Assembly (NCBI GenBank): GCA_021521415.1
Contig: JAIQDT010014655.1
Coordinates: forward strand, 42,501-106,500
From: Bidens hawaiensis
Taxonomy: Eukaryota > Streptophyta > Magnoliopsida > Asterales > Asteraceae
Length of the DNA stretch: 64,000 nt
Direction of reading: 5' to 3'
Under the pieces are notes generated by a model. It made no database searches. It had not been told where the DNA came from and worked only from the letters and a program-made list of their open reading frames with translations. Positions 1,160-41,613 of the stretch are shown piece by piece (position 1 is the first letter of the stretch; each line of letters opens with the position of its first letter). The translations under genes and the position numbers were made by a program.

Positions 1160-3772
1160 ATGTCGTCAATCAACATTACGGAACTAGTTAAGATGGAAGT
1201 GGAAGCAGGTTCGGCTACAAAGGCACCGAAGATGCTTAAGAAAACTGATTATGTAGCGTGGAAAGATCGTTTTGAACAATATGTCAAGTACCAATATGCT
1301 AAGATGTGGGTATGCATACAAGATGGTTACATTCCACCTACTACTTAGTATGAGGGTCGTGATCAGATCAAGAAATACAAAGAGATGGAAGAAGAAGAGA
1401 AGAAAATGTATGAGGCCGAAAGCAAAGCTCATGCAGCAATTACAATGGCTCTTCCACAAGAGATTCTGCACACTTTCAGAAAGTATAAAACTGCCAGAGA
1501 GCTTTGGGAAGCGCTTGAAAACCGGTTTGAGGGCAATGTGGGAATTCGTGCATCGAAGATTAAACTTCTAAAAACCCAATTCTCGGTCTTCAAGTATCTG
1601 AAGAATGAATCACTTGATGATATCATCACTAGATATTATCATCTGATGACTGAACTCAGCAACTATTCAATTGTTTACAAAGAAGATGAGATTGTTGAAA
1701 AGCTTCTTGATGCTCTCCCACCGAAATGTGAGATGTATACTGTGTTGAGGACAGAAGACAAAGACTTTGCTGACTATGACCTGGAGACAGCAGTTAACAA
1801 GCTAAGAACGTTTGAACTGAACATGGTACGAAAGGAGACACCAACCGATCAGGTTCAAGATCCGGGTATGTATGGTGCAAAGGTTAACTCAGGATCAAGT
1901 TCGAAAACTGAATCATCTGCTTATTACTCTAAGGGAGAGTCAGGCGCTAGCTCAACACATGAAGGACATGTATCTCTCAACATGAACGGTGATGTGTGCT
2001 TTGTAGCTGGAGGATCAAATGCTTCTCAACCTCAAGCGACCAAGAATAGTTTTTCCCCAAGTGTTTCAAACAACAACTACTCGAAGATGCCCATGAGTGT
2101 TAAATCTGCTGAACAGCAGTTTGCTCTCTATGCATCTTTTATTGCTTCGTATGAGAATTACATTCAGGGTAAGATTGTTGATCCTGCAATTTTGGATGAA
2201 GACTATGATCAGATCGATGCTGATGATCTGGAGGAGATGGATCTGCAGTGGCAGATGGCTATGATTGTGAGAAGGGTTAAGAGGTTCATGAAGAAGACTG
2301 GCAGGAAGTTTGTCGGTGAGAGGCCAGGGTTTGATAAGTCGAAGGTTCGCTGTTACAACTGTCAGCAGAATGGCCACTTTGCAAAAGAGTGCAAAAATGA
2401 ACGTGTAGAACGCAGTCAAAATAGATCTACACAGCAGAGTGGTAGTGGTAATGACTATAGAGCCATGATTTCCAGACAGAACGAGGAGTACAACTGGAAT
2501 CTGCATGTTGAAGAAGTATTTGAACAGGCCAATTTGGCCAACATCGAAACTGCAGATAGTGAGAAGGGAACTGGCGAAAATGAAGCTTACATGGCAGATG
2601 TGGCAGACCAGCTCTCCGAGGTAAGTACCGAACTCCCTTGTACTAAGTGTGAACATCTGTCTGAACAACTGACAACTTTAACTGATCAGTTTGTTAGTTT
2701 GGATGCGCAATTTAAAACATTAAAAGAAGATCATCATTTCACTAAAGCTAGAGAAAATAGTTACAAAGTAAAAATTAAAGCTAGTGAGAAAGATATTAAA
2801 AGTCTTAAAGCAAAGCTTGCTGAAAAAATTCAAATGATTGATCTTAGCTATGAAGTACTAGAAGAGAAAACCAAACTAATAGCTGAAAGGGATAAACAGA
2901 TAGCTGATCACCAGGTGAAAGTGGTGGAACTTAACAGGAAACTTGAGAAATTCAGAAATTCCACCGCTATACTTGATCACCTCGTTAGTGATCAAGGTTC
3001 CCCAGTTAAAAGGGGAGGAATTGGTTATCATGAAGTTCCACCACCTTTCAATCATAATTACACTTATGACCCTAGTAATCAGAAATCTGTCGATGTTGAC
3101 TATGGTCAGACAGTTCCGGTTAAAGTAACGATTAAAGAACCAGAAGTTAGTAAAGGCGAAACAAGTAAGCCTGTTACTAGTGTTAAGATTTCTGCTCCGA
3201 GTCATGTCTCATCAAACTCGAACAAGACATCTGAGTCGAGTGAGACAAAACAAGAGGAAGTGTTACCAAAAAGTGGAGAGAAAGATAAAACACCTGAAAA
3301 GAAGTCTCCACTAAACCCGTATGTCCCACCATATGTGAGACAAACGGACAGTAATACAGCCTCAACATCTAAAACAACTATGGAAAAGAAAATTGAACAC
3401 AGGAGTTGTTTCAGATGTAATCAATTAGGACACCTAGTTGCTGATTGCCCTCTGAAGCAAAGATTCAGAGGTGTGAGGCCTTCGAGAACTGAGAATAGAA
3501 CTAACGGAAATGTTAAAACTGAAAACCCATCAAAATTCAGAAATTGGTCTAATTCAGGTTTTCAAAGAAATAGATCTCAGTTTTTCACTGCTAACAACCA
3601 AACCATAGGTAATAATTCTTTTAATTCTCGAAGGTTTGGATGGCCTCATAGACAATCCACAACAAGGTATCCTGTTAGGACTCACAGAAATTATTATGAT
3701 ACTAACTTTGGATAGCCAAGGTACGGGATGTATCGACTCAAGACCAATTGGTCTTGGGTCCCCAGATTTTAA
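1160..3772 (+). pseudogene. gag: gag of element A, broken by two nonsense codons
   Basis: Gag of a copia element: an N-terminal UBN2/DUF4219-like capsid region (starts MSSINITEL; motifs TDYVAWKDRF, LKTQFSVFKYLKNESLDD), a first CCHC knuckle (CYNCQQNGHFAKEC), a long coiled coil (about 2640-2960) and a second CCHC knuckle (CFRCNQLGHLVADC, about 3409). In-frame TAG codons at 1346-1348 and 3713-3715 interrupt it, and the normal stop is TAA 3770-3772. The start ATG at 1160 matches the start in B, D and E. Unlike B, D and E, gag and pol are in the same frame here, because of an indel between the splice signals. Confidence 0.9.
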
Positions 3773-3793
3773 TCATCTGCTTTAATCGTGCAG
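2621..3793 (+). other. Candidate gag-pol intron (element A)
   Basis: The donor is GAG|GTAAGT after 2620 and the acceptor is CGTGCAG|GAA at 3793/3794. Both fall between codons, so splicing would join Gag residue E to Pol residue E. The same signals occur in B, D and E. The branch-site motif is weaker here (TTAAT rather than CTAAY). This is inferred from sequence; no transcript evidence is available. Confidence 0.55.
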
Positions 3794-13263: not shown

Positions 13264-14444
13264 CTGCACAATAAAGTAAAGGATTAGAATCAAGGGACCC
13301 AAGACCAATTGGTCTTGGATCTATACATCCCGTACTTCTGCTTTCCGAAGTTAGCATTTGAATAATTCCTGTCAGTCCTAGTAGGAAATCTCATTGGAGA
13401 TTGAGTGTGAGGCCTTCCAAACCTATGCGTATTGAAAGTATTATATCTTACGGTTTGGTGATTAGCATTGTAAAACTGAGGTCTGTTTCTTTGAAAACCT
13501 GAACTAGGTACGTTTCGAAACTTTGAATGGTTTTCAGTTTTAGCATTATTAAAATTACCAGTAGACTTATGCTCAGTTTTAATAGGCCTCACGCCTCTGA
13601 ATTTCGGCGTCAGAGGACAATCTGCAACAAGATGTCCTACCTTATTACACCGAAAACAACACCTATACTCCATTTTCTTTTCAAATGTTGTTTTGGATGT
13701 AGAGGCAGTGTTACCAGCCGTTCGTCTCACATAAGGTGGGACGTACGGGTTGAGTGGAGTACTCTTTTTAGAAGTTTTATCTTTATCTCCACCAGTGGGT
13801 AACACTACCTTCTCTTTTGTCTTACCCGATTCGGACAACTTATCCGAATCCGATGAGACTGGACTCGTAACAGAAATATTTACACTTGAAACAGGCGAAC
13901 TCGTTTCGCCACTACTAACTCTTGATTCTTTACTTGTAACCTTGATAGGAACTGTCTGAGGAACTTCAAAATCAGCAGATTTCTGTACACTAGGGTTAAA
14001 AGTGTAATTGTGGTTATACGGTGGTGGAACCTCGTGATAACCAATTCCTCCTCTCTTTGTAGAGGTACCTTGATCACTAACAAGGTGATCAAGAATAGCT
14101 GAGGAATTTCTGAACTGTTCTAGTTTTCGGTTCAGTTCCACCACTTTCACCTGGTGGTCAGCAATCTGCTTCTCTCGTTCAGCAATCAGTTTAGTTTTTT
14201 CTTCTAAAACCTCATAACTTAGATCAATTACTTCAATTTTTTCAGCAAGTTTAGTTTTTAAGCTTTTAACATCTTTTTCACACGCTTTAATTTTAACTTT
14301 GTAACTGTTTTCTCTTGCTTTTGTAAAGTGATGATCTTCTTTAAGAGTTTTAAATTCAGCATCTAAACGAACATACTGATCAGTTATGGTAGCAAGTTGC
14401 TCAGACAAATTCTCACACTTAGTACAAATAGATTTAGAACTTAC
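13264..14444 (-). other. Candidate gag-pol intron (element B)
   Basis: Minus strand: donor GAG|GTAAGT (exon ends 14445), acceptor TTTATTGTGCAG|GAA (exon resumes 13263), with a CTAAT branch-like motif about 25 nt before the acceptor. Length is 1181 nt. Gag and pol are in different frames, yet both sites are phase 0, so removal fuses them in frame. Confidence 0.62.
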
Positions 14445-16487: not shown

Positions 16488-16961
16488 TGTAGGTTCCCTG
16501 GACGGATCACACGAGATATCCCGATATACACATGTGCGGAATCCCTGTGTAGATCGTTACGGACGTAGAATATTAGTTCACGAACACACGTACACACAAT
16601 ACGAACAACCACACGTTATATTGATAACTCAAACCGAGATGCTTACAGACTCACGTCAATAGACTCACACGTAACTGAACTCGATCAACCCAAGCACAAA
16701 CTGACCAACTGATTAACCTTAAACCGTAAACAGTTACACTACTTAAATACACGACAACTTCGCCTCAGGCGAAGTTGTCAATAACTTCGCTCGTTGAACA
16801 AGTTCGCCTAGGCGAACTTGTCAACAACTTCGCTTGGTTAACAAGTTCGCCTAAGCGAACTTGTCAACAACTTCGCTTCTAAACAAACAATTACATAAAC
16901 AATATTACAGACTCGATTACAGGCTTTATACATATGAACTACTGACATCTATGCACCAACA
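16488..16961 (-). repeat. 5' LTR of element B
   Basis: 474 bp, paired with 4415-4889 and flanked by the PBS on its left and the TSD GTACC (16962-16966) on its right. It is the 5' LTR in minus-strand orientation. Its palindrome cluster is at about 16755-16880. Confidence 0.95.
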
Positions 16962-16966
16962 GTACC
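16962..16966. repeat. Target site duplication of element B, right copy
   Basis: GTACC, identical to 4410-4414. Confidence 0.95.
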
Positions 16967-21630: not shown

Positions 21631-21871
21631 ATGGCTGCTGTAGGTGGTGCAGGCGGAGATGACGGTGGTGATAACCAGAGACAGTTCTTCCCGGGTCATA
21701 ACATGTATATAACATTAGACCCGGAGGCGAGCGGAGTTGATGATTTTCGCGAAATCATCACATTTCTTTTACGCTCGCGGATATTCCACGCGATTACAAC
21801 AACTCTGCCGATATCCTTGCCCAACATTGAGGATTTTTGGCAGACCGTGGAATATGACTGTAGAGTCGAAC
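21631..21871 (+). pseudogene. ORF3 of element A, part 1
   Basis: The first 80 codons of ORF3 (MAAVGGAGGDDGG start, ITFLLRSRIFHAIT, FWQTVEYDCR). It is cut by element E after 21871 and resumes in frame at 34208. The last five bases (CGAAC) are the target duplication. Confidence 0.9.
21867..21871. repeat. Target site duplication of element E, left copy
   Basis: CGAAC directly before the LTR at 21872, repeated at 34203-34207. Confidence 0.95.
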
Positions 21872-22295
21872 TGTTGGTACATGTGTGTCATTAGTTCATA
21901 GTCTAGCATTTATAATCGAGTCTGTAATGCAATTATGTTTTGATTATGTTTGTAACACGCGAAGTTGTCAACAAGTTCGCTCTGGCGAACTTGTTGAACC
22001 AGCGAAGTTATTGACAACTTCGCCTATGGCGAAGTTGTCGTGTATATAAACTGTTTCAGCCGAAACAGTTTGGTGTTGGTCGTTTAGGGTTTCGTTTCAC
22101 TTGTTCACTTCGTGTGTTACGTGTCATTGTCTGTAACAGTGACCTCGGGTCACGTGTTTGTTATCAATATAACGTGGTTGGTTTATTGCTTGTGTGTTCG
22201 ATCTCTACATACTCTACACTCGTATCTACCTACGCAGGGATTCCGCACCTGCGTTGTTAGCGACATCCCGTGTACGATCCGTCCGGGAACCTACA
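21872..22295 (+). repeat. 5' LTR of element E
   Basis: 424 bp, TGTTGG...CCTACA. The palindrome cluster at about 21956-22039 is followed by a TATATAAA box at 22043-22050, the likely genomic RNA promoter. The PBS follows at 22298. Confidence 0.95.
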
Positions 22296-22854
22296 ATTGG
22301 TATCAGAGCCATCGGCTCGATTGTGAGGTTCGGGATTTCACGCGGGTGTAGAAAACGTCTCGTTTGACCTATTCGCGGGACGTGTTTTTGTTGGGATTGT
22401 GTTTTGCTCGTGCTTGACAGTCATTTTCAAGCCATTGCATTGATCGGAAACTGCTGGATTGACGAAAACAGATCTGAACAGTTTCCTTGTTCATCGGGCG
22501 AAGTTACCGTTCTTCGGGCGAAGTTACCATTCTTCAGGCGAAGTTGCCGTCACTGGAATTAGGGTTTCGGCGAAGATATAAGGATTAGCGAAGTTAACCA
22601 CAACTTCGCTTACCTCATAAGTTCGCCTTAGCGAAGTTATCCGCAACTTCGCTTTCCACCCAAGTTCGCTTACCTCCTAAGTTCGCTCATTCTAAGCGAA
22701 GTTATTTTTAACTTCGCCAAGTCTAGCGAATTTAAGACCCAGCGAAGTTCTCTTTTCAGCGAAGTTAACTTTCAAGCGAAGTTATTCTTAACTTCGCCTA
22801 CTGAGCTGTTTTAATATTTTTTTGTATTTTCAGGTTTTTCAGGTTTTCGCAAGG
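22296..22854 (+). promoter_or_regulatory. Primer binding site and leader of element E
   Basis: TGGTATCAGAGCC at 22298-22310 matches initiator tRNA-Met. The leader from about 22495 to 22800 holds a dense run of GCGAAGTT, AACTTCGC and AAGTTCGC motifs in both orientations, with no ORF of note. It ends at the gag ATG. Confidence 0.88.
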
Positions 22855-25479
22855 ATGTCGTCAATTAACATCTCCGATTTGGTCAAGATGGAAGTAGAAG
22901 CGGGGTCTGCCACTAAGGCCCCGAGGCTGATGAAAGGAACTGACTTCGTGGCATGGAAGGACAGATTCATCCAATACATCAAATACCAGGATGCCAAAAT
23001 GTGGGTGTGCATCCAGGATGGATATATCCCTCCAACTGCGCAATACGAAGGTCGTGATGTGGTTAAGAAGTATAGCAAAATGGAGGACGAAGAAAAGAAA
23101 ATGTATGAGGCCGAGAGAAAGGCCCATGCTGCGATAACAATGGCACTTCCTCAAGAGGTTCTCCATACGTTCCGAAAGTACACTTCTGCGAGAGAGCTTT
23201 GGGATGCTCTTGAAAATAGATTCGAGGGGAATGTGGGTATCCGTGCATCAAAGATCAAACTCTTAAAGACCCAGTTCTCCGTCTTCAAATTTTTGAAGAA
23301 CGAATCACTGGATGATATTATCACCAGATACTATCATCTAATGACAGAGCTTAGCAATTATTCGATTGCTTACCGAGAAGAAGAGATCGTTGAAAAGCTT
23401 CTCGATGCTCTCCCACCGAAGTGGGAAATGTACACCGTTCTTATGAGGGAAGACAGAGACTTTCCTAATTATGATCTTGAAACGGCAGTAAACAAGCTCA
23501 GAACTTATGAGCTTAATATGGTTCGAAAAGAAACACCAACAGATCAGATACAAGACCCTGGTATGTATGGTGCAAAGGTTAACTCAGGCTCGAGTTCGAG
23601 GCCTGAATCTGCTGCTTATTACTCAAAAGGGGAGTCAGGTTCTGACTCTTCTCATGAAGGAAACGTTTCTGTAAACTCGAATGGTGATGTCTGTTTCGTT
23701 GCTGGAGGGTCAAGTACTTCAAAGCCTCAAGCATCCTCAAGTGGTTTTTCTGCAAATGCCTCAAGCAATAATTATTCCAAGATGCCTATGAGTGTAAAAT
23801 CTGCTGAAGAGCAGTTTGCAGTCTATGCATCATTTATTGCTTCCTACGAAAACTACATTCAGGGGAAGATTGTGGACCCTGCTGCACTGGATGAGGACTA
23901 CGAACAGATCGATGCTGATGATCTGGAGGAGATGGATTTGCAATGGCAAATGGCAATGATTGTGAGGCGTGTAAAACGGTTTATGAACAAAACTGGGAGA
24001 AAGTTTGTTGGTGGTAGGCCCGGGTTCGACAAATCCAAGGTAAGGTGCTATAATTGTCAACAGTACGGGCACTTTGCCAAGGAATGCAGAAATGAGAGGG
24101 TTGAACGAGGACAAGGTCGGCCTACACAACACTCTGGAGTTAACAGAGAGATTAACGCCATGTTGACCAGAGAAGCAGGTGAGTACAACTGGAACCCGCA
24201 TTCAAGTGGTTCTGGTGAGCAAGCGAACATGGCTGAGGCTGAAGTTAAAGAATGTGAGAAGGTTGATGGAATTGAGAAAGCTACTGAAGAAGAAACAGCT
24301 TTCATGGCAGATGACAAGGATAATCGCTCCGAGGTAAGTACTAAGAATATTTGTACTAGTTGTGAGAATTTGTCTGAGCAACTTACAACGATAACTGATC
24401 AGTATGTCCGTTTAGATGCTGACTTTAAAACTATTAAAGAAGATCACCATTTTACGAAAGCAAGAGAAACAAGTTATAAAATTAAAATAAAAGCATGTGA
24501 AAAAGACATTCAAAGCTTAAAAATTAAACTTGCTGAGAAAATTGAAATAATTGATCTTAGTTATGAAGTTTTAGAGAAAAAAACAAAATTGATTGCTGAT
24601 CGAGATAAACAGATTGCTGACCACCAGGTGAAGGTGGTGGAACTGAACCGCAAACTTGAGCAGTTCAGGAATTCCTCGGCAATCCTTGATCACCTCGTGA
24701 GTGATCAAGGTACCTCTACAAAGAGGGGAGGAATCGGATATAACGAAGTTCCACCACCCTTTAACCACAACTATACTTATAATCCGAGTGTTCAGAAATC
24801 TGTTGATTTCGAAGTTCCTCAGACAACTCCAATCAAGATTACAAGTGTAAAACCAAGTGTTAGCTGTGGCGAAACAAGTTCGCCTGTTTCTAATGTGAAT
24901 ATTTCTGTTTCTAGTCCAGTCTCATCGGATTCGGATAAGTTGTCCGAATCTGGTCAGACAAAAGAGAAGGTAGGGTTACCCACCGATGGAGATAAAAATA
25001 AAGTTTCTAAAAAGAGTTCTCTACTCAATCCGTACGTCCCACCTTATGTGAGACGAACGGCTGGTAACACTGCCTCTACATCCAAACCAACATTTGACAA
25101 GAAAATGGAGTGTCGGTGTTGCTTTAGATGTAACAAATTAGGGCATTTAGTTGCAGATTGCCCTCTGGAGCCGAGATTCAGAGGTGTGAAGTCAAATAAA
25201 ACTGAGTATAAGCGTCATTTTGCTACTGCTAAAAATGAAAACTTTACAAAATGCCAAAATGTAACGAATTCAAGTTTTCATAAAAACATACCTCAGTTTT
25301 ACAACCAAACCACAAGATATAACACTTTCAATTCTCAAAGGTTTGGGAGGCTTTACCCTCAATCTGCAAGGAGATTCCCTAACAGGACTTACAGAAATTA
25401 TCCTGATGCTAACTTGAGAAAGCCAGGGTACGGGACGTATCGATCCAAGACCAATTGGTCTTGGGTCCCAAGATTCTAA
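22855..25479 (+). CDS. gag: gag of element E, intact (874 aa)
   Basis: Capsid/nucleocapsid protein of the element. Residues about 1-260 are the UBN2/DUF4219-like copia Gag region. CCHC knuckle 1 is C398-C401-H406-C411. Residues about 505-620 are a charged coiled coil. CCHC knuckle 2 is C756-C759-H764-C769, and the C-terminus is Asn/Arg-rich, ending WSWVPRF. ATG 22855 is chosen because MSSINIS is conserved in all copies; the open frame upstream has no ATG. The gag frame overlaps the open pol frame by 67 nt (25413-25479). At residue 493 the sequence contains a perfect splice donor. At 874 aa it is long for a copia Gag; long coiled-coil Gags are typical of Sireviruses. Confidence 0.95.
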   Translation: MSSINISDLVKMEVEAGSATKAPRLMKGTDFVAWKDRFIQYIKYQDAKMWVCIQDGYIPPTAQYEGRDVVKKYSKMEDEEKKMYEAERKAHAAITMALPQEVLHTFRKYTSARELWDALENRFEGNVGIRASKIKLLKTQFSVFKFLKNESLDDIITRYYHLMTELSNYSIAYREEEIVEKLLDALPPKWEMYTVLMREDRDFPNYDLETAVNKLRTYELNMVRKETPTDQIQDPGMYGAKVNSGSSSRPESAAYYSKGESGSDSSHEGNVSVNSNGDVCFVAGGSSTSKPQASSSGFSANASSNNYSKMPMSVKSAEEQFAVYASFIASYENYIQGKIVDPAALDEDYEQIDADDLEEMDLQWQMAMIVRRVKRFMNKTGRKFVGGRPGFDKSKVRCYNCQQYGHFAKECRNERVERGQGRPTQHSGVNREINAMLTREAGEYNWNPHSSGSGEQANMAEAEVKECEKVDGIEKATEEETAFMADDKDNRSEVSTKNICTSCENLSEQLTTITDQYVRLDADFKTIKEDHHFTKARETSYKIKIKACEKDIQSLKIKLAEKIEIIDLSYEVLEKKTKLIADRDKQIADHQVKVVELNRKLEQFRNSSAILDHLVSDQGTSTKRGGIGYNEVPPPFNHNYTYNPSVQKSVDFEVPQTTPIKITSVKPSVSCGETSSPVSNVNISVSSPVSSDSDKLSESGQTKEKVGLPTDGDKNKVSKKSSLLNPYVPPYVRRTAGNTASTSKPTFDKKMECRCCFRCNKLGHLVADCPLEPRFRGVKSNKTEYKRHFATAKNENFTKCQNVTNSSFHKNIPQFYNQTTRYNTFNSQRFGRLYPQSARRFPNRTYRNYPDANLRKPGYGTYRSKTNWSWVPRF

Positions 25480-25499
25480 CTCTTTGTTTTATTGTGCAG
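24334..25499 (+). other. Candidate gag-pol intron (element E)
   Basis: The donor GAG|GTAAGT is at 24331-24339, the acceptor TTTATTGTGCAG|GAA at 25499/25500, and a CTAAC branch-like motif overlaps the gag stop about 25 nt upstream. The length is 1166 nt (not a multiple of three), and both sites are phase 0 in their own frames. Splicing would give a 1593-aa Gag(1-493)-Pol fusion that keeps knuckle 1 and loses the coiled coil and knuckle 2. Confidence 0.65.
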
Positions 25500-28400
25500 G
25501 AACAGTTGAACAGGGCTGCCAACAATCTTTGGATTGTAGATAGCGGCTGTTCCCGGCACATGACAGGCAACAAACACTTGTTGCAAGACTTAAAACCTGT
25601 TCAGGGAGCAAGAGTTAGTTTTGCTGGTGAGAGCGGTGGTAGGATTACTGGTAGAGGAACAGTGTCGAATGGGAGAATGACACTTGAGAATGTAAATTTT
25701 GTGGAGGAATTAAAGTACAATCTGCTGAGTGTGTCGCAGATTTGTGATAAAGATTACACTGTCCATTTCACGAAGAATGAAGCGATCGTATTGAAGCCTG
25801 GTTTTCAAATACCAGACGAATGGATAGTAATGAAAGCTCCACGTGAAACGAATACATATGTGATGGATATGAGGTCTACTGAAATGGCCACTGGAGAATC
25901 CTGTTTAATGACAAAAGCAAGCGAATCAGAATCAGAATTATGGCACAGGAGAATGGGACATATTCATCTTCGGAAGATGAACTTCATTGTCAAGAATGGG
26001 CTTGTGATGGGCGTTCCCTTAAAAAGTTTTAACTTTGAAGACAAATGTATAGCATGCAAGAAGGGAAAGCAACACAAGAAATCCCATCTCACCAAGAAGA
26101 TTAACTCAATTGCCGGTACTCTAGAACTACTTCATATGGATCTCTTTGGTCCCGTGAATGTACAAAGTCTAGGAGGTACCTCTTACTGCTTGGTGATCAC
26201 TGATGACTACTCGCGATATTCGTGGGTATATTTTCTGAAAACGAAAGATGAGACGGCTCAAATGGTGAAGAATCTAATTACAAAAGTTGAGAACGTCATG
26301 AGTAAATCAGTTAAATTCATCAGAAGTGACAATGGGACAGAGTTCAAGAACTTTGAAATGGAAATCTTCTGTCTTCAGAAGGGAATTGAACATCAATACA
26401 GCGCTCCGTATACTCCGCAACAGAATGGAGTGGCTGAAAGGAAGAACCGAACGTTAATTGAAGGAGCCAGAACTATGCTGGCAGACTCGAAGCTTCCTGT
26501 GATGTTCTGGGCTGAAGCAGTTGCTACAGCCTGCTATGTTCTGAATAGGGTGTTAACCGTTAAGAGACTTGGAAAAACTTGTTACGAGCTTATGCACGGA
26601 AGGAAGCCCAACTTGTGCGGTCTTGAACCATTTGGGTCTCCTTGTTCGATTTTGAAGACTAATTCGAAATTTGGTGAAGTAGCCGATGAGGGAATCCTAG
26701 TCGGTTATGTTGTTGGGACTCCCAACAGACGGGTCTTCAATACGTCGACTTGCAAGGTGGAGGTGGTTTGTAACACCGACATTACTAGTTACCAACCGCC
26801 AAAACCAAGCAATGGACCTGCTGAGCTTTTCGATTATGTTAAACTTTTTAAGTCGTTTAACGTACCTGATTTGGAAATTTCTGAAGAAGACGAAAGAGCT
26901 GTGACGAAGATGATACTTGATGAGGAAGAGAATCTATTGCAACATCAGATGTTTGAGAAAACTCAACCTTCCACATCAAACCCTATCGATACCCCTGCGG
27001 CCTCAACTGAAGAAGAATTTATTAATCCTTTTCACACTCAACCTGAAACAATCATAGATGAGATCTCTTCAAACTTGGAAGACAATTTACATGTCGGTGC
27101 TGTTCCGACCACGAGAATTCACAAAGATCACCCATTGGAGAACGTTATAGGTGATGTGTCCTCCAGTGTACAAACCAGAAGTAGCTTGAATGAGCACACC
27201 TGTGTTTATACAAGCATTAAAGAAACGGGTATAATGAACGAATGTTTGTACTCCTGCTTTATAAGCCAAATTGAACCAAAGAACTATCAAATGGCTTTAA
27301 AGGACAGCTCGTGGGTCGAGGCCATGCAAGAAGAGTTGGCTCAGTTCGAGAAAATGGAAGTTTGGACCTTGGTTGAAAAACCAAGGAATGTGCATGCTAT
27401 AGGCACAAAATGGGTGTTCAAGTGTAAGAGAGATGATAAGGGAATTATTGTAAGAAATAAGGCGAGGCTGGTTGTTAAAGAATTTAATCAGCAAGAGGGT
27501 ATTGATTACAATGAGGTGTTTGCTCCTGTCGCCCGGTTAGAAGCGATTCGATTGTTTTTGGCGTTTGCTGCATTTAAAAAGATGAAGGTATTTCAGTTGG
27601 ATGTGAAGAGCGCGTTTCTAAACGGGAAAGTTGATGAGGTTGTGTATGTTGAGCAACCTCCGGGTTTTCCTGACCCAGACTTTCCTGATCACGTATACAG
27701 GTTGAGCAAGGCATTGTATGGGTTACATCAGGCACCTCGTGCCTGGTATTCAACGTTATTGGACTACTTGCTGGAAAATGGTTTTGAAAGGGGATTGATT
27801 GACAGTACGTTGTTTGTGAAGAGAGAAGGATGTGACTTCCTACTGGTTCAAGTCTACGTGGATGATATCATTTTTGCTGCATCAAGAGTATCCATGTGTC
27901 AGGATTTTGAAGCTGTCATGAAGAAACGATTCGAGATGAGTGCTATGGGTGAACTAACTTTCTTTCTAGGATTGCAGGTTGATCAGAAGAAGGATGGGAT
28001 GTTCATTCATCAAACGAAGTACGTTCATGATGTGCTGAAAAGATTCAAGATGGAGGACAGTTCTCCATATGATACTCCAATCTGCGTCAATCACAAATTG
28101 GGTGCTGAATCAGATGGTGACGCAGATGTGGACCCAACTCTGTATCGGGCGATAATAGGTTCATTAATGTATTTAACTGCTTCTAGGCCTGATATAATGT
28201 TTGCTGTTTGTCTTTGTGCACGTTTTCAGGCAAATCCGAAAGAATCTCATTTGAAAGGTGCAAAGAGGATACTACGGTATCTCAAGGGCAAGCCGAATCT
28301 GGGGTTGTGGTACCCGAAGGGAGGAGACGTTGAACTGGTGGCATATACAGATTCTGATTATGGGGGATGCAATCAGAGTCGGAAGTCAACCACAGGAGGC

Positions 28401-28802
28401 TGTCAGTTTCTTGGAGGAAGATTAGTTTCCTGGCAGTGCAAGAAACAGACATCAGTTGCAATTTCAACATGCGAAGCTGAATACATGGCAGCATCCAACT
28501 GCTGCTCTCAGGTTTTGTGGATTCAGCAACAATTGCGCGACTATGGTCTGAATTTCTTACTCACTCCTATTTTAATTGATAACACTGCCGCCATCTCAGT
28601 AATTAACAATCCCGTGAAGCACAGTAAAACTAAGCATATTGACATTCGTCATCATTTCATACGGGATTGTGCTGAGAAGAAACTGATCAAGATCGAAAAA
28701 GTTGATACACTTGAAAATTTTGCTGATCTGTTTACAAAAGCGTTTGATAAATCCAGATTTCAAAACCTAATTGAGCTGAACGGGATGATCAATCCCGAGT
28801 AA
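25500..28802 (+). CDS. pol: pol of element E, intact polyprotein (PR-INT-RT-RH)
   Basis: Open frame to TAA 28800-28802; 1100 aa if entered at GAA 25500 after the candidate acceptor (frame open from 25413). Counting from the TTG at 25455: protease Asp29 in VDSGCSRHMTG; integrase HHCC zinc domain about 150-210; integrase core D229, D292, E328 (35-residue D-E spacing); RT from about 625 with YVDD at 801-804; RNase H with TDSDYGG and STCEAEYMAAS. All catalytic motifs are present. INT before RT is Ty1/copia order. There is no ATG at its start, so it needs splicing, frameshifting or similar to be made. Confidence 0.95.
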   Translation, partial: EQLNRAANNLWIVDSGCSRHMTGNKHLLQDLKPVQGARVSFAGESGGRITGRGTVSNGRMTLENVNFVEELKYNLLSVSQICDKDYTVHFTKNEAIVLKPGFQIPDEWIVMKAPRETNTYVMDMRSTEMATGESCLMTKASESESELWHRRMGHIHLRKMNFIVKNGLVMGVPLKSFNFEDKCIACKKGKQHKKSHLTKKINSIAGTLELLHMDLFGPVNVQSLGGTSYCLVITDDYSRYSWVYFLKTKDETAQMVKNLITKVENVMSKSVKFIRSDNGTEFKNFEMEIFCLQKGIEHQYSAPYTPQQNGVAERKNRTLIEGARTMLADSKLPVMFWAEAVATACYVLNRVLTVKRLGKTCYELMHGRKPNLCGLEPFGSPCSILKTNSKFGEVADEGILVGYVVGTPNRRVFNTSTCKVEVVCNTDITSYQPPKPSNGPAELFDYVKLFKSFNVPDLEISEEDERAVTKMILDEEENLLQHQMFEKTQPSTSNPIDTPAASTEEEFINPFHTQPETIIDEISSNLEDNLHVGAVPTTRIHKDHPLENVIGDVSSSVQTRSSLNEHTCVYTSIKETGIMNECLYSCFISQIEPKNYQMALKDSSWVEAMQEELAQFEKMEVWTLVEKPRNVHAIGTKWVFKCKRDDKGIIVRNKARLVVKEFNQQEGIDYNEVFAPVARLEAIRLFLAFAAFKKMKVFQLDVKSAFLNGKVDEVVYVEQPPGFPDPDFPDHVYRLSKALYGLHQAPRAWYSTLLDYLLENGFERGLIDSTLFVKREGCDFLLVQVYVDDIIFAASRVSMCQDFEAVMKKRFEMSAMGELTFFLGLQVDQKKDGMFIHQTKYVHDVLKRFKMEDSSPYDTPICVNHKLGAESDGDADVDPTLYRAIIGSLMYLTASRPDIMFAVCLCARFQANPKESHLKGAKRILRYLKGKPNLGLWYPKGGDVELVAYTDSDYGGCNQSRKSTTGGCQFLGGRLVSWQCKKQTSVAISTCEAEYMAASNCCSQVLWIQQQLRDYGLNFLLTPILIDNTAAISVINNPVKHSKTKHIDIRHHFIRDCAEKKLIKIEKVDTLENFADLFTKAFDKSRFQNLIELNGMINPE

Positions 28803-30920
28803 CCATGTCTTTGTATTTATTTAAAAAAAAAAAAAAAATGTGTCATTATTGCTTAAAATTAGTCGGTTACCTCAGTTTGATGGACATATCCTCGGATATG
28901 TTTTGGTCCTCGTTTCGACTTAGAGAATGAGGATAGCCATTAACCGGAAGACTGAAAGTGACCGGGGCAGTTATGACGTGTGTTCTTTCAGTTGCTGAAA
29001 ATTAGTCGGTCATTCTTAGTAAGAAGGACACATACTTGTATGTGGTCGGTCCAGTTGATCCATTGGATCTTCAGGATTGCCGTTTACCTGAAGACTTTGA
29101 CGTGATCGGGGCGATTGAAATCAAAAATTTTAAGGGAAATGAAATTACTTTTCAAGTCTAATACTTCGTAAGAAGTTCTTTGCTGTGTTTAACAGAAAAT
29201 TGATCCAACCTTGGAAAATGATATATATACTGATTGTGTGTGCTTAACTAGTGAAGTTATTAGGCTTAAAAGGCTTTAGAACAGTCATTGTATGTCATGG
29301 TAATTTTTTATGGTGCGTAAAAGTGTATGTGATACTAACTTAAACTACTCGAATTTACGTGGAAACTCCTTAAGAGTTTTGAATGTCTTCACACATATCT
29401 TTCCGAATGATAGGCAGAAAAGCGACTACCCAGTCATACACGAGCCCGTGAGTGTTCTGATTCCCGTGAAGAAAGCATTTCAAGACACTGCAGTGATCCA
29501 GATTCGGGACTTGCAGTGGTTTAGTACTCCGAAGTCAATAAGAATGTTTGGTATAAAAAAAAAAAATATATATATATATATATACATGTATATTTTTAGT
29601 ACTTATGAGACATAGTAACAATCAAGACTTCTCAATTCTGGAGTAAGAAGAGAACGGGAAGCAAACAACGAGTATATACAAGTTAATCAGACACTATGGG
29701 TCGAAGTCAATTCGGGGTGACTTGGGTATAGCCAAATACGCTTTGAGAATAGATAGAAGACATCATTATCTCTGAGTTGTTGCCCACTTAAAATTTTGAG
29801 CTTAACTGAACCTTAATCCGTATCACAGAAACGATGAAAACCATTTAAGTTATTTACATGCTTACAACCTGTTTCTCTATGTCATAATACAGCTAAACAC
29901 GGATCCAAGTGACAGTCACATAGTTAGTATGATTCCTGTTGGGATCTTTTCTAAAACGTAGTAGTCCCTGAGTAGACTGAAATTTGATCCCTTATTTCGT
30001 TAAATTTTTATAAGTTTTTCTATTTTTGTAGTTATGTTATTTTATAACTGGTTACTTGGACATGATCCTTTTTGTTTAAACTCTTTTTGGAAGCTTCTAA
30101 TGTTAAGTGCATGATTCTTCAAACTTAAAGGGTAGATTTTGAACTTACGGGCGATGTTGTTGAATTCGGCGAAGTTGTGCTTAACTTCGCCAAGGCGAAG
30201 TTAAGCGTAACTTCGCCTGAACAAACTCTGCCCTATATAAAGACTTTGAAACAGTAACAGTTCATTATTCTCAACTCATTCCGGCGAATTTACGAATATT
30301 TCCGGCGAACTTGATTATATTTTCGATTTCGATCGTTGTTTCCAGTTTCTCGTGTTTATTGACGGTATGTGTTGTCAATATCATTCACAAACTTACTCGT
30401 TCGGTATAGTTTTACCCGGTTCGAGACCTCGGGTCATCGAACCTTCAAAACCTAGTTTTTCAACCGTGTATTACGTGTTCATGGACGACCTTTTCGTCTC
30501 AAAACCATTAATATAAGCTGTTCTCTACTCCTGGATCGTCAAATCGTTGCGAAAACATCGGATCTATGGCCTTTGAATCTGAACAGTCGCCGTTTCAGAT
30601 TCAGGCGAAGTTAAGGTTTAGGCGAAGTTATCCACAACTTCGCCAGGAGATTAATTTCGCCTGTGGCGAAGTTATCCGTAACTTCGCCTTGAACTCAAGT
30701 TCGCCTGTGGCGATGTTGTGATAAGGCGAAGTTATCATCAACTTCGCCTATACCAATTTACTTAACAGTTTTGACGAACTTACAGTTGAAGCGAAGTTGT
30801 TCCCAACTTCGCCTCACCTATAAGTTCGCCTGTACAGGTTTAATCACAACTTCGCATGTGGTACATAGCGAACTTGTGAGTTGCTTAACTGTTCTCTAAC
30901 TTGTTTTGTTTTGTGCAGAT
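28803..30920 (+). promoter_or_regulatory. Pol-ORF3 spacer of element E with internal promoter
   Basis: 2.1 kb without a convincing gene. In order: a 16-A tract (28823-28838), a long stretch conserved in A, B and D, an A-run plus (TA)n microsatellite (about 29555-29584), two adjacent GGCGAAGTT...AACTTCGCC hairpins (the second at 30194-30217), a TATATAAA box at 30234-30241, further palindromes (about 30602-30870), and an acceptor-like TTTTGTGCAG (AG 30917-30918) directly before the ORF3 start. The hairpin-plus-TATA order copies that of the LTR. Confidence 0.68.
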
Positions 30921-33713
30921 ATGGCTGCTGTTGGAGGTGCTGGTGGTGACGACGGTGATGATCAACGACAATTCTTTCCAGCCCATAACCAGTACATCAC
31001 TTTAGATCCAGACGCACGAGGCGTAGAAGACTACAGGGAGATTATCACGTTTCTCCAGCGATCAAGAGTCTTTCATGCGATCACAAATACACTGCCCATT
31101 TCTCTGCCTAACATTGAAGACTTTTGGCAGACAGTGTACTATGATTGCAGGCCTGAGCCTCCGGTGATGCGAGCAACCGTAAATGGTCATAACATACAGT
31201 TTTCCTCGGAAGATATACGGTTGGCTCTGCAGTTCGGTGAAGAAACAAGAGATGACCCAACGGAGTTCGTAGCTCCTTTCCGTGATGGAGCTTATTTGAG
31301 GATGGGTTATTCGGGTCCGCTGGGGGACTCGCAGAGGAGGAAAGGGTTTTTGCTGGATCAATGGCGCTTCCTGATGCATGTATTGATTGTATGCATGTCC
31401 GGCAGGAAGGCAGGAACAGATGGGATGGGCGCGACGATGCAGTCAGCCATGATAGCGCTGACTTACAACCGCCGATATTCTTTTAGTCAGCTGATATTCT
31501 ACGAGATCGATCGTCAGAGAAGGGCTGTAGCGCGCGAGCGATTCACTATGTATCCTCGTTTCTTACAGATGATTTTGAATCATGTCGCTCCGTCGCTACC
31601 GCAGAGACGCCCGATTAGATACGTCGAATGCGTGACGAAACGTATCTTTGCTCAGTGCCGAACTTCGAGCACTCGTAGCAAGCCTGAGCTGCGTCCCAGG
31701 CATACTCCACTGTTCGGGTATCTTATCAACCCGGGGTATGTTCCTGCAGGAGGGGACGAGTTCAGAGACCCACAGCCACATCAGGCGGCAGCACCACATG
31801 CTGTATCAGCTGCGCCTGTTGTATCTACTGTTGCCTCTGCTGCTATGCCAGCTGTGGTATCTCCTGCTGTGTCTACTGCTGAAGACGTTGATCTTGCTGC
31901 TGCCTTTGGCGTACATGGTGTGTTTGATATGGATGTCTCGGGTCCTCAGTTTATGGATGTTACTAGAGCAGTTACTTCGGTAGCTGACTCCGATCTAGAC
32001 GAAACGTTTGCTGAAGCGAGACGACTTATGGTGTCTCGGGAGAGAATTACGGGAAAGAGGCCGAGAACTGTAGACGAGGATGAGGACGAAGTTGATGAAG
32101 AGGAGGCAGTGCAGATTGTGCTCAGACGTTCACGAAGAGAACAGACAGGTATGGGTTCGGGAGCTGGAGAATCTTCAAGGCTGGTACGTTTTGCTCCACC
32201 TGCCTTGTCTGGTATGTCTCTTATTCCTACTACAGCACAGGTTACTGCTGTCGAGACGTCGGCCCCAGCAGTTGTGTCTCTACCACCCCAATCGCTTACT
32301 ACACCGGTGGTGGTTGCACGATTTGTGGAGTCGACCATCACTACTACTGCAGGGTTACCAAGTGTACCACCTGCGGTCACTTTTGCTGCTGATGTCCCGC
32401 CAACTCCAACGCCTACTTCAGATTCCGAGAGGATTACATCACTAGAGCGGATTGTTGCTGATCAGACAAAGACCATTCAAAGCCTAGTGGAATCCAATCG
32501 ACTACAAGCAGCCCTCCTGGTTGAACACGGTAAAGTTATAGATGCCTTCAAGGCATTCTTGGCATCTCAGGGGGAGAAGACTTGTAGGGGAGATGAGTTG
32601 AGGACGAAACGGAGAGAAGATCATGACGATGATCCCAATGCACCGGAAGGTGCAGGTGGTGAGCTGCCAAGAACCTCTCAGGCTCTTGGGGCTTCCACAG
32701 CTGAGGGGGAGTCTACAAATGCAGCTGGTGACGATGTTGTAAATGGTGATGATGATGCTGATGTTGAAGATGTTATCGACGCATTGAAAGAGTTGGATGA
32801 GGAGGATGATGAGTTTATGATTGAAGATAATGTGCGGCCAGTTGATGAGATCGAGAGGATTGGAGAGCAGATTACGGTTGAAAACGTATTAGAGGAAGGT
32901 GAGATTGTAGATGACTCCGTGGAACACGAGATTCCGGAGGTTGAGAGACCAGAGCTGGGTGATGAGAACGTGGAGGAAGATGCTGAGTGGGAGGAACAAC
33001 TGAAATGGAAGGAGGGTTGTGCCCACTGGTTCGTAAAGACGAAGAAGCCGGCGGTCCCTAAGATGTTCAGAAAAAGTTACAATATTAAGGGATACGCGGA
33101 AGCCAAGAAAGGTATTATCTGCTGGTTATACGACGAGCAGCTGCGGCTCTTCGTGATCAAGAGATACGATGGCATTCAGTACTTCCAGAGAAAGTTGAGA
33201 TCTCTAAACACACTGCCAGAATGTGAAGTAAAAGATTTAGCCAGATTGGGATTGGTAAACAGAAGTGAAGACAAGATGGCTAGAATCATTGCGAAGATCG
33301 TGTGGAAAGAGTGCGTTAAAGAGAAAAAGTTTGAGCTACTGAAACCACAAAAAGGGAAACTTGTCGAAGACAAGGATAGAGGTCTGAGAGTTGATGGAAA
33401 ACCTTGGATGGTCATGAAATACAAACCGATCCGGTGCCTTAAAGAAGTACCGATGAAGCTCATGCCCAAGGACGTGCTCAAAGATCTAAAATGGTGGTAC
33501 GTGGATTGTGAGACAGCTGAGGCGGTAATGGAAGATGAGGATGAACAAGAAGTACTTCGGGTTTACGACCCGATGCATCTTGTTAATCTATCGCAGGCTG
33601 ATCTGAAAGTGCTCAACGAGAAGAAGATCTTCTACATTCCTGCTTGGAAGGATCAAGCTAGGAAATATCAACGGGTGGTGTCGGTATGTGTTAGAGAAGG
33701 AGCGCACGCGTAG
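30921..33713 (+). CDS. ORF3 of element E, intact 930-aa protein of unknown function
   Basis: Pol-distal ORF. Residues 1-20 are Gly/Asp-rich. About 35-260 is a probably helical globular region (FLQRSRVFHAITN, FWQTVYYD, LLDQWRFLMHVLIVCMSG, YPRFLQMILNHV). About 270-500 is low-complexity Val/Pro/Ser/Thr with a basic, NLS-like patch (GKRPR about 377, RRSRRE about 400). About 500-550 is a short amphipathic helix or coiled coil. About 560-690 is highly acidic. About 690-930 is a conserved C-terminal domain (KTKKPAVP, KSYNIKGYAE, LARLGLVNR, FYIPAWKD). I see no signal peptide, membrane segment or enzyme motif, so an Env role is unlikely. Similar pol-distal ORFs occur, as I recall, in Asteraceae copia elements; their role is not known to me. 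ATG 30921 is conserved in all copies. Confidence 0.88.
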   Translation: MAAVGGAGGDDGDDQRQFFPAHNQYITLDPDARGVEDYREIITFLQRSRVFHAITNTLPISLPNIEDFWQTVYYDCRPEPPVMRATVNGHNIQFSSEDIRLALQFGEETRDDPTEFVAPFRDGAYLRMGYSGPLGDSQRRKGFLLDQWRFLMHVLIVCMSGRKAGTDGMGATMQSAMIALTYNRRYSFSQLIFYEIDRQRRAVARERFTMYPRFLQMILNHVAPSLPQRRPIRYVECVTKRIFAQCRTSSTRSKPELRPRHTPLFGYLINPGYVPAGGDEFRDPQPHQAAAPHAVSAAPVVSTVASAAMPAVVSPAVSTAEDVDLAAAFGVHGVFDMDVSGPQFMDVTRAVTSVADSDLDETFAEARRLMVSRERITGKRPRTVDEDEDEVDEEEAVQIVLRRSRREQTGMGSGAGESSRLVRFAPPALSGMSLIPTTAQVTAVETSAPAVVSLPPQSLTTPVVVARFVESTITTTAGLPSVPPAVTFAADVPPTPTPTSDSERITSLERIVADQTKTIQSLVESNRLQAALLVEHGKVIDAFKAFLASQGEKTCRGDELRTKRREDHDDDPNAPEGAGGELPRTSQALGASTAEGESTNAAGDDVVNGDDDADVEDVIDALKELDEEDDEFMIEDNVRPVDEIERIGEQITVENVLEEGEIVDDSVEHEIPEVERPELGDENVEEDAEWEEQLKWKEGCAHWFVKTKKPAVPKMFRKSYNIKGYAEAKKGIICWLYDEQLRLFVIKRYDGIQYFQRKLRSLNTLPECEVKDLARLGLVNRSEDKMARIIAKIVWKECVKEKKFELLKPQKGKLVEDKDRGLRVDGKPWMVMKYKPIRCLKEVPMKLMPKDVLKDLKWWYVDCETAEAVMEDEDEQEVLRVYDPMHLVNLSQADLKVLNEKKIFYIPAWKDQARKYQRVVSVCVREGAHA

Positions 33714-33767
33714 AGATGCAAGATTACAAGACTCAAGATTTGAAGATCAAGATATGAAGCTACTGCC

Positions 33768-33776
33768 AAGGGGGAG
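33768..33776 (+). promoter_or_regulatory. Polypurine tract of element E
   Basis: AAGGGGGAG, two bases before the 3' LTR at 33779. Near-copies of it lie inside ORF3 at 32569-32576 and 32703-32714. Confidence 0.9.
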
Positions 33777-33778
33777 TC

Positions 33779-34202
33779 TGTTGGTACATGTGTGTCAGTA
33801 GTTCATAGTCTAGCATTTGTAATCGAGTCTGTAATGCAATTATGTTTTGATTATGTTTGTAACACGCGAAGTTGTCAACAAGTTCGCTCTGGCGAACTTA
33901 TTGAACCAGCGAAGTTATTGACAACTTCGCCTATGGCGAAGTTGTCGTGTATATAAACTGTTTCAGCCGAAACAGTTTGGTGTTGGTCGTTTAGGGTTTC
34001 GTTTCACTTGTTCACTTCGTGTGTTACGTGTCATTGTCTGTAACAGTGACCTCGGGTCACGTGTTTGTTATCAATATAACGTGGTTGGTTTATTGCTTGT
34101 GTGTTCGATCTCTACATACTCTACACTCGTATCTACCTACGCAGGGATTCCGCACCTGCGTTGTTAGCGACATCCCGTGTACGATCCGTCCGGGAACCTA
34201 CA
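33779..34202 (+). repeat. 3' LTR of element E
   Basis: 424 bp, differing from 21872-22295 at about 3 positions by eye. TATATAAA lies at 33950-33957. It is followed by TSD CGAAC. Confidence 0.95.
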
Positions 34203-38962: not shown

Positions 38963-41593
38963 ATGTCGTCGATCAACATTTCGGAGCTTGTCAAGATGGA
39001 AGTTGAAGCGGGGTCAGCTACAAAGGCCCCAAGGTTGCTGAAGGGAACCGATTTTGTCGCGTGGAAGGATCGGTTCATACAGTATGTTAAGTACCAGGAT
39101 GCAAAAATGTGGGTATGCATCCAAGATGGATATATTCCACCGATCATGGAGTATGAGGGTCGAGACCAAATCAAGAAATACAGTAAAATGGAAGAAGAGT
39201 AGAAGAAGATGTATGAAGCCGAAAGCAAGGCTCATGCTGCAATCACAATGGCTCTTCCACAGGAGATCCTCCATACATTCAGAAAGTATACATCAGCTAG
39301 AGAGCTTTGGGAAGCTCTTGAGAGCAGATTCGAAGGAAATGTAGGCATTCGGGCCTCAAAGATAAAGTTACTCAAGACTCAATTTTCAGTCTTTAAGTAT
39401 TTGAAGAACGAATCTCTTGATGATATTATCACTCGATATTATCATCAAATGACTGAATTGAGTAACTACTCCATTTCATACCGAGAAGAAGAGATTGTGG
39501 AGAAACTTCTCGATGCTCTCCCACCAAAATGGGAGATGTATACTGTACTGATGAGAGAAGACAAGGACTTCTCTACTTATGATCTTGAAACCGCGGTCAA
39601 CAAGCTCAGAACTTTTGAGCTTAATATGGTAAGAAAAGAAACATCTATGGATCAGGTTCAAGATCCGGGCATGTACGGTGCTAAAGTAAACTCCAATACA
39701 AGTTCAAAGACTGACTCTGCCGCCTACTACTCGAAGGGTGAGTCGGGTGCCAATTCTTCACAGGAGGGGCATGTGTCAGTAAACTCAAATGGGGATGTTT
39801 GCTTTGTTGCGGGTGGATCAAGTGGTACTCAACAGACAGCAAGCCAGAATAGTGGATCTTCTAGTTCCTCAAGCAATAATTACTCTAAGATGCCAATGAG
39901 CGTCAAATCTGCTGAAGAGCAGTTTGGCCTCTATGCTTCATTTATTGCTTCATATGAAAACTATATTCAAGGAAAGGTGGTTGATCCAGCGATGCTAGAT
40001 GAAGACTATGACCATATCGATGCTGATGATCTGGAGGAGATGGATTTACAATGGCAGATGGCCATGATAGTGAGGAGAGTGAAGAAGTTCATGAGGAAGA
40101 CGGGGAGAAAGTTTGTTGGTGGCAGGCCAGGGTTCGACAAGTCCAAGGTGAGGTGCTATAACTGTCAACAAAACGGGCACTTTGCCAAAGATTGCAGAAA
40201 CGAGCGAGTTGAACGTGGCTAGGGCCGGTCTCCACAGCACACTGGGAGTACTAAAGAAGTCAATGCCATGCTGTCCAGAGAAGCAGGTGAATACAACTGG
40301 AACCTGCATTTGAATGAAACTAGTGAACAGGCAAATATGGCTAAGGTTGAGAATGAAGAACGTGAGAAGACTACCGGAGAAGAGAAAGCTACTGGTAAGG
40401 AAAAAGCTTTCATGGCAGATAACAATGATCAAATCTCCGAGGTAAGTTCTAAATCTATTTGTACTAAATGTGAGAATTTGTCTGAGCAACTTGCTACCAT
40501 AACTGATCAGTATGTTCGTTTAGATGCTGAATTTAAAACTCTTAAAGAAGATCATCACTTCACAAAAGCAAGAGAAAACAGTTACAAAGTTAAAATTAAA
40601 GCATGTAAAAAAGATGTTAAAAGCTTAAAAACTAAACTTGCTGAAAAAATTGAAGTAATTGATCTAAGTTATGAGGTTTTAGAAGAAAAGACTAAACTGA
40701 TTGCTGAACGAGAAAAGCAGATTGCTGACCACCAGGTGAAAGTGGTGGAACTGAACCGAAAACTAGAACAGTTCAGAAATTCCTCAGCTATTCTTGATCA
40801 CCTTGTTAGTGATCAAGGTACCTCTACAAAGAGAGGAGGAATTGGTTATCACGAGGTTCCACCACCGTATAACCACAATTACACTTTTAACCCTAGTGTT
40901 CAGAAATCTGTTGATTTTGAAGTTCCTCAGACAGTTCCAATCAAGGTTACGAGTTCAGAACCAAGTGTTAGTAGTGGCGAAACGAGTTCGCCTGTTTCAA
41001 GTGTGAATATTTCTGTTACGAGTCCAGTCTCATCGGATTCGGAAAAGTTGTCCGAATCGGGTAAGACAAAAGAGAAGGTAGTGTTACCCACTGGTGGAGA
41101 AAAAGATAAAACTTCTAAAAAGAATACTCCACTCAACCCGTACGTCCCACCTTATGTGAGACGAACGGCCGGTAACACAGCCTCTACATCCAAAACAACA
41201 TTTGAAAAGAAAATGGAATATAGGTGTTGTTTTAGGTGTAATAAGTTAGGACATCTTGTTGCAGATTGTCCTCTGACGCCGAAATTCAGAGGCGTGAGGC
41301 CTATTAAAACTGAGCATAAGCTTAATGGTAATTTTAAAAATGAAAACCCTTCAAAGTTTCAAAATGTAACTAATTCAGGTTTTCAAAGAAACAAACCTCA
41401 GTTTTACAATGCTAATCACCAAACCGTAAGATATAATACTTTCAATACACATAGGTTTGGAAGGCCTCACACTCAATTTCCAAGGAGATTTCCTAACAGG
41501 ACTGACAGGAATTATCCAAATGCTAACTTTGGAAAGCAGAAGTACGGGATGTATAGATCCAAGACCAATTGGTCTTGGGTCCCTAGATTCTAA
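38963..41593 (+). pseudogene. gag: gag of element D, two TAG codons
   Basis: An 877-codon Gag frame, collinear with B and E and free of frameshifts. TAG at 39200-39202 replaces a Glu codon in a Glu/Lys run, and TAG at 40220-40222 lies just after knuckle 1 (CYNCQQNGHFAKDC). Coiled coil at about 40460-40800; knuckle 2 (CFRCNKLGHLVADC) near 41230. The stop is TAA 41591-41593, overlapping the branch-like CTAAT of the candidate intron. Confidence 0.92.
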
Positions 41594-41613
41594 TCATTTG
41601 CTTTATTGTGCAG
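40442..41613 (+). other. Candidate gag-pol intron (element D)
   Basis: Donor GAG|GTAAGT after 40441; acceptor TTTATTGTGCAG|GAA at 41613/41614; CTAAT at about 25 nt upstream. Length 1172 nt. Both sites are phase 0, so gag and pol join in frame despite lying in different frames. Confidence 0.62.

What the first reader, a model, noticed from the sequence alone, without database searches (positions are those of the whole stretch)
24331..25502. A conserved intron may switch the element between Gag and an in-frame Gag-Pol
Seen: in A, B, D and E a full-consensus donor GAG|GTAAGT lies at the same mid-gag codon (2618-2620, 14447-14445, 40439-40441, 24331-24333), and a TGTGCAG|GAA acceptor with a T-rich tract, preceded about 25 nt upstream by a CTAAY branch-like motif in B, D and E (TTAAT in A), lies at the gag/pol boundary. 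Donor and acceptor are both phase 0 in all four. In B, D and E gag and pol are in different frames and the intron length is not a multiple of three, so the in-frame fusion is not automatic. Established: Drosophila copia and plant BARE use splicing to favour Gag, and Ogre (Ty3/gypsy) elements splice within gag-pol. Inference: here the unspliced RNA makes full Gag, and splicing makes Gag-Pol that drops the Gag coiled coil and second zinc knuckle, setting the ratio by splicing and not by frameshift or stop readthrough.
Basis: partly seen in the sequence, partly recalled or inferred. Interest (0 to 1): 0.88.

Follow-up and report, generated by a model that had tools for sequence, protein, structure and literature searches.

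The report
Retrotransposon intron joining Gag to Pol
In a family of plant jumping genes, splicing appears to cut a protein-coding piece out of the coat-protein gene and so join it in frame to the enzyme gene; rare genomic copies that look copied back from the spliced RNA indicate that this cut really happens.

Summary
Donor and acceptor are real, and splicing between them has left copies in the host genome. A search for the predicted spliced junction gave 32 hits. Of 30 examined, 10 are intronless: gag exon 1 joined in phase to pol exactly at the predicted sites, the ~1.17-kb intron gone; 18 keep the intron and 2 are other rearrangements. On two trees the intronless state needs 7 changes, at least 6 forced. 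LTR sequence lies upstream in 8 of 10; the one copy read at both ends has a target-site duplication. Unspliced acceptors number 11,138, so spliced templates are about 0.1%. The intron is itself coding, with Gag's second zinc knuckle and dN/dS 0.19-0.36. RNA and protein were not measured, and one shifted-junction control did not complete. Addition: the 3' ORF has its own acceptor in all four elements, and one recent LTR copy joins the gag donor to it. The elements look like Sireviruses, whose pol expression is described as unresolved recoding.

The parts
21872..34202 (+). Element E, complete LTR retrotransposon (LTRs 21872-22295 and 33779-34202, 99.3% alike; flanking repeat CGAAC)
   Evidence: self-comparison; flanks
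22855..24333 (+). gag exon 1 (493 codons; capsid domain PF14223 and first CCHC knuckle)
24331..24339 (+). splice donor GAG|GTAAGT, phase 0 in gag
24334..25499 (+). intron of 1166 nt that is also coding (381 codons of Gag C-terminus: heptad-like segment, second CCHC knuckle)
   Evidence: absent from 10 genomic copies
25442..25467 (+). hairpin, 11-bp stem with 4-nt loop, inside the intron before the branch-like motif
25476..25480 (+). CTAAC branch-like motif; contains the gag stop TAA (25477-25479)
   Evidence: branch function inferred
25493..25502 (+). splice acceptor TGTGCAG|GAA, phase 0 in pol
25500..28802 (+). pol exon (protease region, integrase, reverse transcriptase)
30895..30920 (+). second acceptor CTAAC...TTTTGTGCAG|AT before the 3' ORF of E (join at 30918|30919)
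   Evidence: one genomic copy joins the gag donor to it
30921..33713 (+). 3' extra ORF of E (930 codons, no Pfam family)
13264..14444 (-). homologous coding intron of element B (1181 nt)
40442..41613 (+). homologous coding intron of element D (1172 nt)
2621..3793 (+). homologous coding intron of element A (1173 nt)

Best explanation
These are Sirevirus-like (SIRE lineage) Ty1/copia retrotransposons whose gag contains a coding intron that host splicing can remove. Unspliced RNA is the genome and the mRNA for full-length Gag, which in E ends at a stop inside the branch-like motif. Splicing from mid-gag GAG|GT to CAG|GAA removes the Gag C-terminal part (second zinc knuckle) together with the stop and puts Gag exon 1 in frame with Pol, giving Gag-Pol. 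Shown from DNA: the sites; precise removal of the intron in copies scattered over the family; the in-phase junction; coding constraint in the intron. Inferred: that these copies come from spliced RNA (very likely), that both proteins are made, and that the splicing rate sets their ratio. A second acceptor before the 3' ORF has been used with the same donor at least once.
For: Spliced-junction search of the whole genome: 32 hits, reversed-pattern control 0; 10 of 30 examined hits are intronless at the exact sites. LTR sequence upstream in 8 of 10, directly abutting the leader in 6; one copy read at both ends has the flanking repeat ATTAT and LTRs 98.1% alike. 7 state changes on each of two trees, at least 6 forced. 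In phase at the junction 10 of 10. Top-ranked sites. Intron length mod 3 varies (0 in 10, 1 in 3, 2 in 3 of 16 loci outside the E-like set), so a single fixed frameshift would not serve. dN/dS of the intron in gag frame 0.19-0.36. Six Helianthus gene models among 120 listed relatives make the same join.
Against: No transcript or protein evidence. Intronless copies are about 10 against 11,138 unspliced acceptor sites. Seven of the 10 carry a stop within 100 codons of the junction, so the fused frame is mostly not kept after insertion. The search looked only for the predicted junction with up to 3 mismatches, so deletions that join other gag positions were not surveyed; two of 30 hits (L054, L060) are other rearrangements ending at the same place. 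A control for a junction shifted by 3 nt did not complete. Some frame variation between loci may be decay.
Confidence: 0.86

Rival explanations
1. Pol is made by translational recoding (frameshift, bypass or internal entry) at the gag/pol boundary, helped by the conserved hairpin, as proposed for Sireviruses; splicing is incidental.
For: The hairpin is there: 17 of 21 distinct intron ends have a full 11-bp stem, one has 10 of 11 pairs, three are broken (fold). In E pol overlaps the end of gag in the -1 frame. Recoding is what the literature proposes.
Against: The gag/pol frame relation differs between subfamilies. By eye no usual shift heptamer precedes the hairpin in E (not scanned by a tool). 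Precise intron removal recurs and restores the frame.
Confidence: 0.08
2. The spliced RNA serves to make a shorter Gag or simply loses the C-terminal Gag part; its in-frame run into Pol is a by-product.
For: Copia, BARE1 and EVD use splicing to make Gag-only RNA. The gag donor to 3' ORF copy would end Gag 28 codons after the join in E, 4 in A.
Against: The pol junction is in phase in all 10 intronless copies and donor and acceptor are both phase 0 while intron length is free to vary; Pol has no other visible start before its conserved N-terminus.
Confidence: 0.04
3. The intronless copies arose by chance deletions or by gene conversion from one old intronless copy, not by splicing.
For: Both ends share AG, so a deletion could be guided by two bases. 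One intronless group (L037-L039, L044) did multiply.
Against: The same exact join recurs in 10 copies needing 7 state changes, and both exons mostly group with the same intron-bearing relatives. The ends are the best-ranked splice sites.
Confidence: 0.02

Closest known systems
Ogre (Ty3/gypsy)
   Same: An intron spliced from a subset of transcripts lets the whole polyprotein be translated; unspliced RNA gives the upstream product (PMC6317226, passage).
   Different: Ogre is Ty3/gypsy and its intron lies between gag-prot and the rest; here the element is Ty1/copia and the intron lies inside gag and codes for its C-terminus.
BARE1 (barley) and EVD (Arabidopsis), Ty1/copia
   Same: Plant copia elements with alternative splicing in the gag region that sets Gag against Pol (PMC3735527, PMC8892269, passages).
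   Different: There the spliced RNA makes Gag only and the unspliced RNA makes Gag-Pol; here it is the other way round.
Sireviruses (SIRE lineage)
   Same: Copia domain order, large gag with zinc knuckle, boundary hairpin, pol often out of frame with gag, extra 3' ORF.
   Different: Pol expression there has been attributed to recoding and the env-like ORF to stop suppression or an internal promoter; splicing was not found in the papers I could search.
Retroviral env splicing
   Same: A 3' ORF reached from an upstream donor while unspliced RNA is the genome (general knowledge).
   Different: In retroviruses Gag-Pol comes from recoding of unspliced RNA; here Gag-Pol itself appears to need splicing, and the 3' ORF join rests on one genomic copy.

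Membership tests
Sirevirus (SIRE lineage, Ty1/copia) | Ty1/copia domains and order (gag, protease region, integrase, reverse transcriptase) | tested here: met
   Pfam hits in order
Sirevirus (SIRE lineage, Ty1/copia) | Large gag with central CCHC knuckle and downstream coiled coil | tested here: inconclusive
   Two CCHC knuckles found; coiled coil judged by eye, no predictor run
Sirevirus (SIRE lineage, Ty1/copia) | Conserved inverted repeat (11-bp stem, 4-nt loop) at the gag/pol boundary | tested here: met
   against the description in PMC5009743; the published letters were not compared
Sirevirus (SIRE lineage, Ty1/copia) | Extra ORF between pol and the 3' LTR (many members) | tested here: met
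   E 30921-33713; homologues in D and B, start in A
Sirevirus (SIRE lineage, Ty1/copia) | Placement by reverse transcriptase phylogeny | not tested
   No reference SIRE sequences were aligned
Ogre-type intron | Intron removal opens the polyprotein | tested here: met
   In-phase junction in 10 of 10 intronless copies, (DNA level)
Ogre-type intron | Ty3/gypsy element with intron between gag-prot and pol ORFs | tested here: not met
   RVT_2 and gag_2 of copia type; intron lies in gag
BARE1/EVD-type splicing | Spliced RNA encodes Gag only | tested here: not met
   Splice to the pol acceptor continues into Pol; the single 3' ORF join would end Gag soon
Retroviral-type env splicing | Upstream donor joined to an acceptor just before the 3' ORF | tested here: inconclusive
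   Acceptor in all four elements; one genomic copy with the join; translation of the ORF unexplained

The most novel reading that the evidence does not exclude
Sirevirus-like elements use one mid-gag donor and two acceptors much like a retrovirus: unspliced RNA for genome and full Gag, one splice for Gag-Pol, a second for a pol-less RNA carrying the 3' ORF. The conserved boundary hairpin, so far read as a recoding signal, is an intronic splicing control. The system is general in Sireviruses and explains their out-of-frame pol.
Probability: 0.42. Interest if true: 0.9.

Novelty: new variant of a known kind. Interest (0 to 1): 0.83.

Why it matters
How Sireviruses make Pol is described as unresolved, with a hairpin and odd frames taken as signs of unusual recoding. 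A coding intron that switches Gag to Gag-Pol would settle this for the present family, reverse the logic known from other plant copia elements (splicing makes Gag-Pol, not Gag), and give Gag a C-terminal part that Gag-Pol lacks. The intronless copies also show that spliced RNA is occasionally reverse transcribed, and they let the idea be tested in any sequenced genome without RNA.

Tried and rejected
Without result: relatives in viral contigs (none) and genome contigs (7 pattern matches, none a relative); Rfam at gathering threshold on 21871-34202 (0); Pfam for the 3' ORF (0 for the stretches sent); donors in leader and LTR (no strong site shared by the four elements); LC8-type motifs in the intron-coded part of E (none, by a recalled pattern). 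Donor constancy among 31 young copies was rejected as evidence: 27% of nine-column windows are equally constant. For the gag|3' ORF junction, 9 hits at 2 mismatches were rejected beside a reversed-pattern control of 4; they were not opened. L071-L073 are unspliced copies with a mutated acceptor. L054 and L060 were set aside as other rearrangements. Two of the 32 junction hits were not cut out and not examined. The script stopped at L054; searches covered all 60 loci. A control with the junction shifted by 3 nt was sent seven times and never answered. Tree rows: 33 of 64 available in the first (25 E-like loci and 6 short or rearranged ones left out), 36 in the second.

Full report
What is there. 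The window lies in a 3.47-Gb assembly of 15,902 contigs. The named protein relatives listed come from Asteraceae such as Helianthus, Smallanthus, Tanacetum, Arctium and Centaurea. The window holds nested Ty1/copia elements. E is 21872-34202 (LTRs 99.3% alike, flanking repeat CGAAC). D is 37933-50474 (99.6%, GATTT). B, minus strand, is about 4415-16962 (96.4%, GTACC). E has a gag ORF with PF14223 and two CCHC knuckles, a pol ORF with Pol_BBD, gag_pre-integrs, rve and RVT_2, and a third ORF before the 3' LTR without a Pfam family. The gag ORFs of A, B and D carry the same gag domains (D's gag is broken); the pol ORFs of A, B and D were not sent to Pfam but match that of E in DNA. This is the SIRE (Sirevirus) layout.

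The observation. With an approximate plant matrix whose frequencies I recalled, they are the best donor and best acceptor of the scanned gag-pol stretch in each of the four elements. The gag stop of E lies inside the branch-like CTAAC. An 11-bp hairpin with a 4-nt loop lies just upstream, inside the intron; it is complete in 17 of 21 distinct intron ends, one pair short in one, broken in three.

The test. If RNA is spliced here and sometimes reverse transcribed, the genome should hold copies with the intron cleanly gone. I searched it for the 27-nt spliced junction with up to 3 mismatches: 32 hits, none for the reversed pattern. Thirty were cut out and examined. Ten (L031-L039, L044) are intronless: gag runs to ...GAG and continues as GAACAG..., the start of the pol exon. 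Eighteen keep the intron and were hit because their acceptors resemble the pattern. Two (L054, L060) are other rearrangements. The search could see only this junction, so other deletions were not surveyed, and a control with the junction shifted by 3 nt did not complete.

Where they come from. Pieces around the ten show gag exon 1, pol and downstream element sequence and no intron match. LTR sequence lies upstream in eight of ten, directly abutting the leader in six; L061 (the L031 copy) lacks the upstream part, and L070 (the L044 copy) shows leader but no LTR hit. The copy on contig C45 was also read at its 3' end: LTRs 98.1% alike, ATTAT on both sides. On a tree of the pol exon (33 rows) the intronless state needs 7 changes, at least 6 forced by well-supported branches. 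A tree of the last 300 nt of exon 1 (36 rows) gives the same numbers and mostly the same partners, for example L034 with L049, L032 near D and B, L031 with L041 and L057. Four copies form one intronless group. So the exact join arose repeatedly, which fits splicing and not chance deletion. Unspliced acceptor sites number 11,138 at the same mismatch limit, so intronless copies are about one in a thousand.

Reading frames. The junction reads in phase (…SE|EQLNRAANN… or close, L036 TE|) in 10 of 10; 7 of 10 have a stop within 100 codons of it, so most are decayed. Of 48 intron-bearing loci, 46 have an alignable donor: GTAAGT in 41, GTATGT in 5. In the 16 of these outside the E-like set, intron length mod 3 is 0 in 10, 1 in 3 and 2 in 3; decay adds noise, but a single fixed frameshift would not serve them all. 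The intron is coding: no stop in gag frame over the stretches compared, dN/dS 0.19-0.36 in six pairs of A, B, D, E, against 0.08-0.12 for pol and 0.07-0.53 for exon 1, where the values above 0.11 come from 66-72 codon comparisons with D. Retention therefore appears to matter as well as removal.

Other species. In six Helianthus gene models among the 120 listed relatives (P0020, P0055, P0097, P0099, P0103, P0112) the same Gag position runs directly into Pol. Other models use this Gag position with other joins, or join Pol to other upstream places. Gag relatives of several genera show Glu, Gln or Lys followed by Val at that place, as a GAG|GT, CAG|GT or AAG|GT donor would encode (seen in the listing, not counted). 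Gene models are predictions, not transcripts.

A second acceptor. A T-rich CTAAC...TGCAG stands two bases before the ATG of the third ORF in A, B, D and E. One genomic copy joins the same gag donor exactly to it (L074). It is a 5.7-kb LTR element with LTRs 99.8% alike (1 difference in 433), CTTGA on both sides and the third ORF open for 927 codons. The genome search found no second exact case, and 1202 sites match the ORF start pattern, so this rests on one copy. In such an RNA the gag frame ends 28 codons after the join in E and 4 in A. It could be a message for a short Gag, for the third ORF, or both.

Comparison with the literature. Ogre splices to open its polyprotein (PMC6317226, passages). 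BARE1 and EVD splice to make Gag only (PMC3735527; PMC8892269; passages). For Sireviruses a 2016 review describes out-of-frame pol and a 27-nt motif with an 11-bp stem as a puzzle (PMC5009743, passages). A 2010 paper names internal entry or bypass for pol, and stop suppression or an internal promoter for the env-like gene (PMC2829016, section 3 and passages); MASiVEdb says the same of the env-like gene (PMC3414828, passages). Papers sought but not held were Gao 2003, Havecker 2005, Steinbauerova 2008 and Oberlin 2017; I know them only through citing papers. Searches for Sirevirus or SIRE with splicing terms and related wording showed, in listings and in the passages I opened, no report of gag-pol splicing in Sireviruses; most subscription papers are not in this library.

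Verdict. Splicing at these sites is strongly supported from DNA alone. Its role as the Gag to Gag-Pol switch is the best reading (0.86) but awaits RNA and protein data. It is a new variant of a known kind of control.

Noticed in passing
window 30895-30921, 21605-21631, 47101-47127, and about 7787 on the minus strand: A good acceptor stands two bases before the ATG of the 3' extra ORF in all four elements; one genomic LTR copy (L075) joins the gag donor to it.
   Followed up: partly
   Followed up: yes
L037, L038, L039, L044 (pieces L067-L070): Four intronless copies group together on both trees, as if an intronless lineage had gone on multiplying.
   Followed up: partly
window 51096-64000: Tandem array of a 178-bp satellite unit, about 72 copies, next to element D.
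   Followed up: no
window 22520-22820, 21329-21592, 30604-30883: Many short copies of GGCGAAGTT/AACTTCGCC in the leader and in the stretch before the 3' ORF, also in LTRs.
   Followed up: no
window 22821-22842: An acceptor-like TTTGTATTTTCAG|G stands just before the gag start of E; a leader intron is possible.
   Followed up: no
L060 1124-1507: About 380 nt without a match to the E features compared, after LTR sequence, run straight into the pol exon at the acceptor position; a chimeric spliced or rearranged copy.
   Followed up: no
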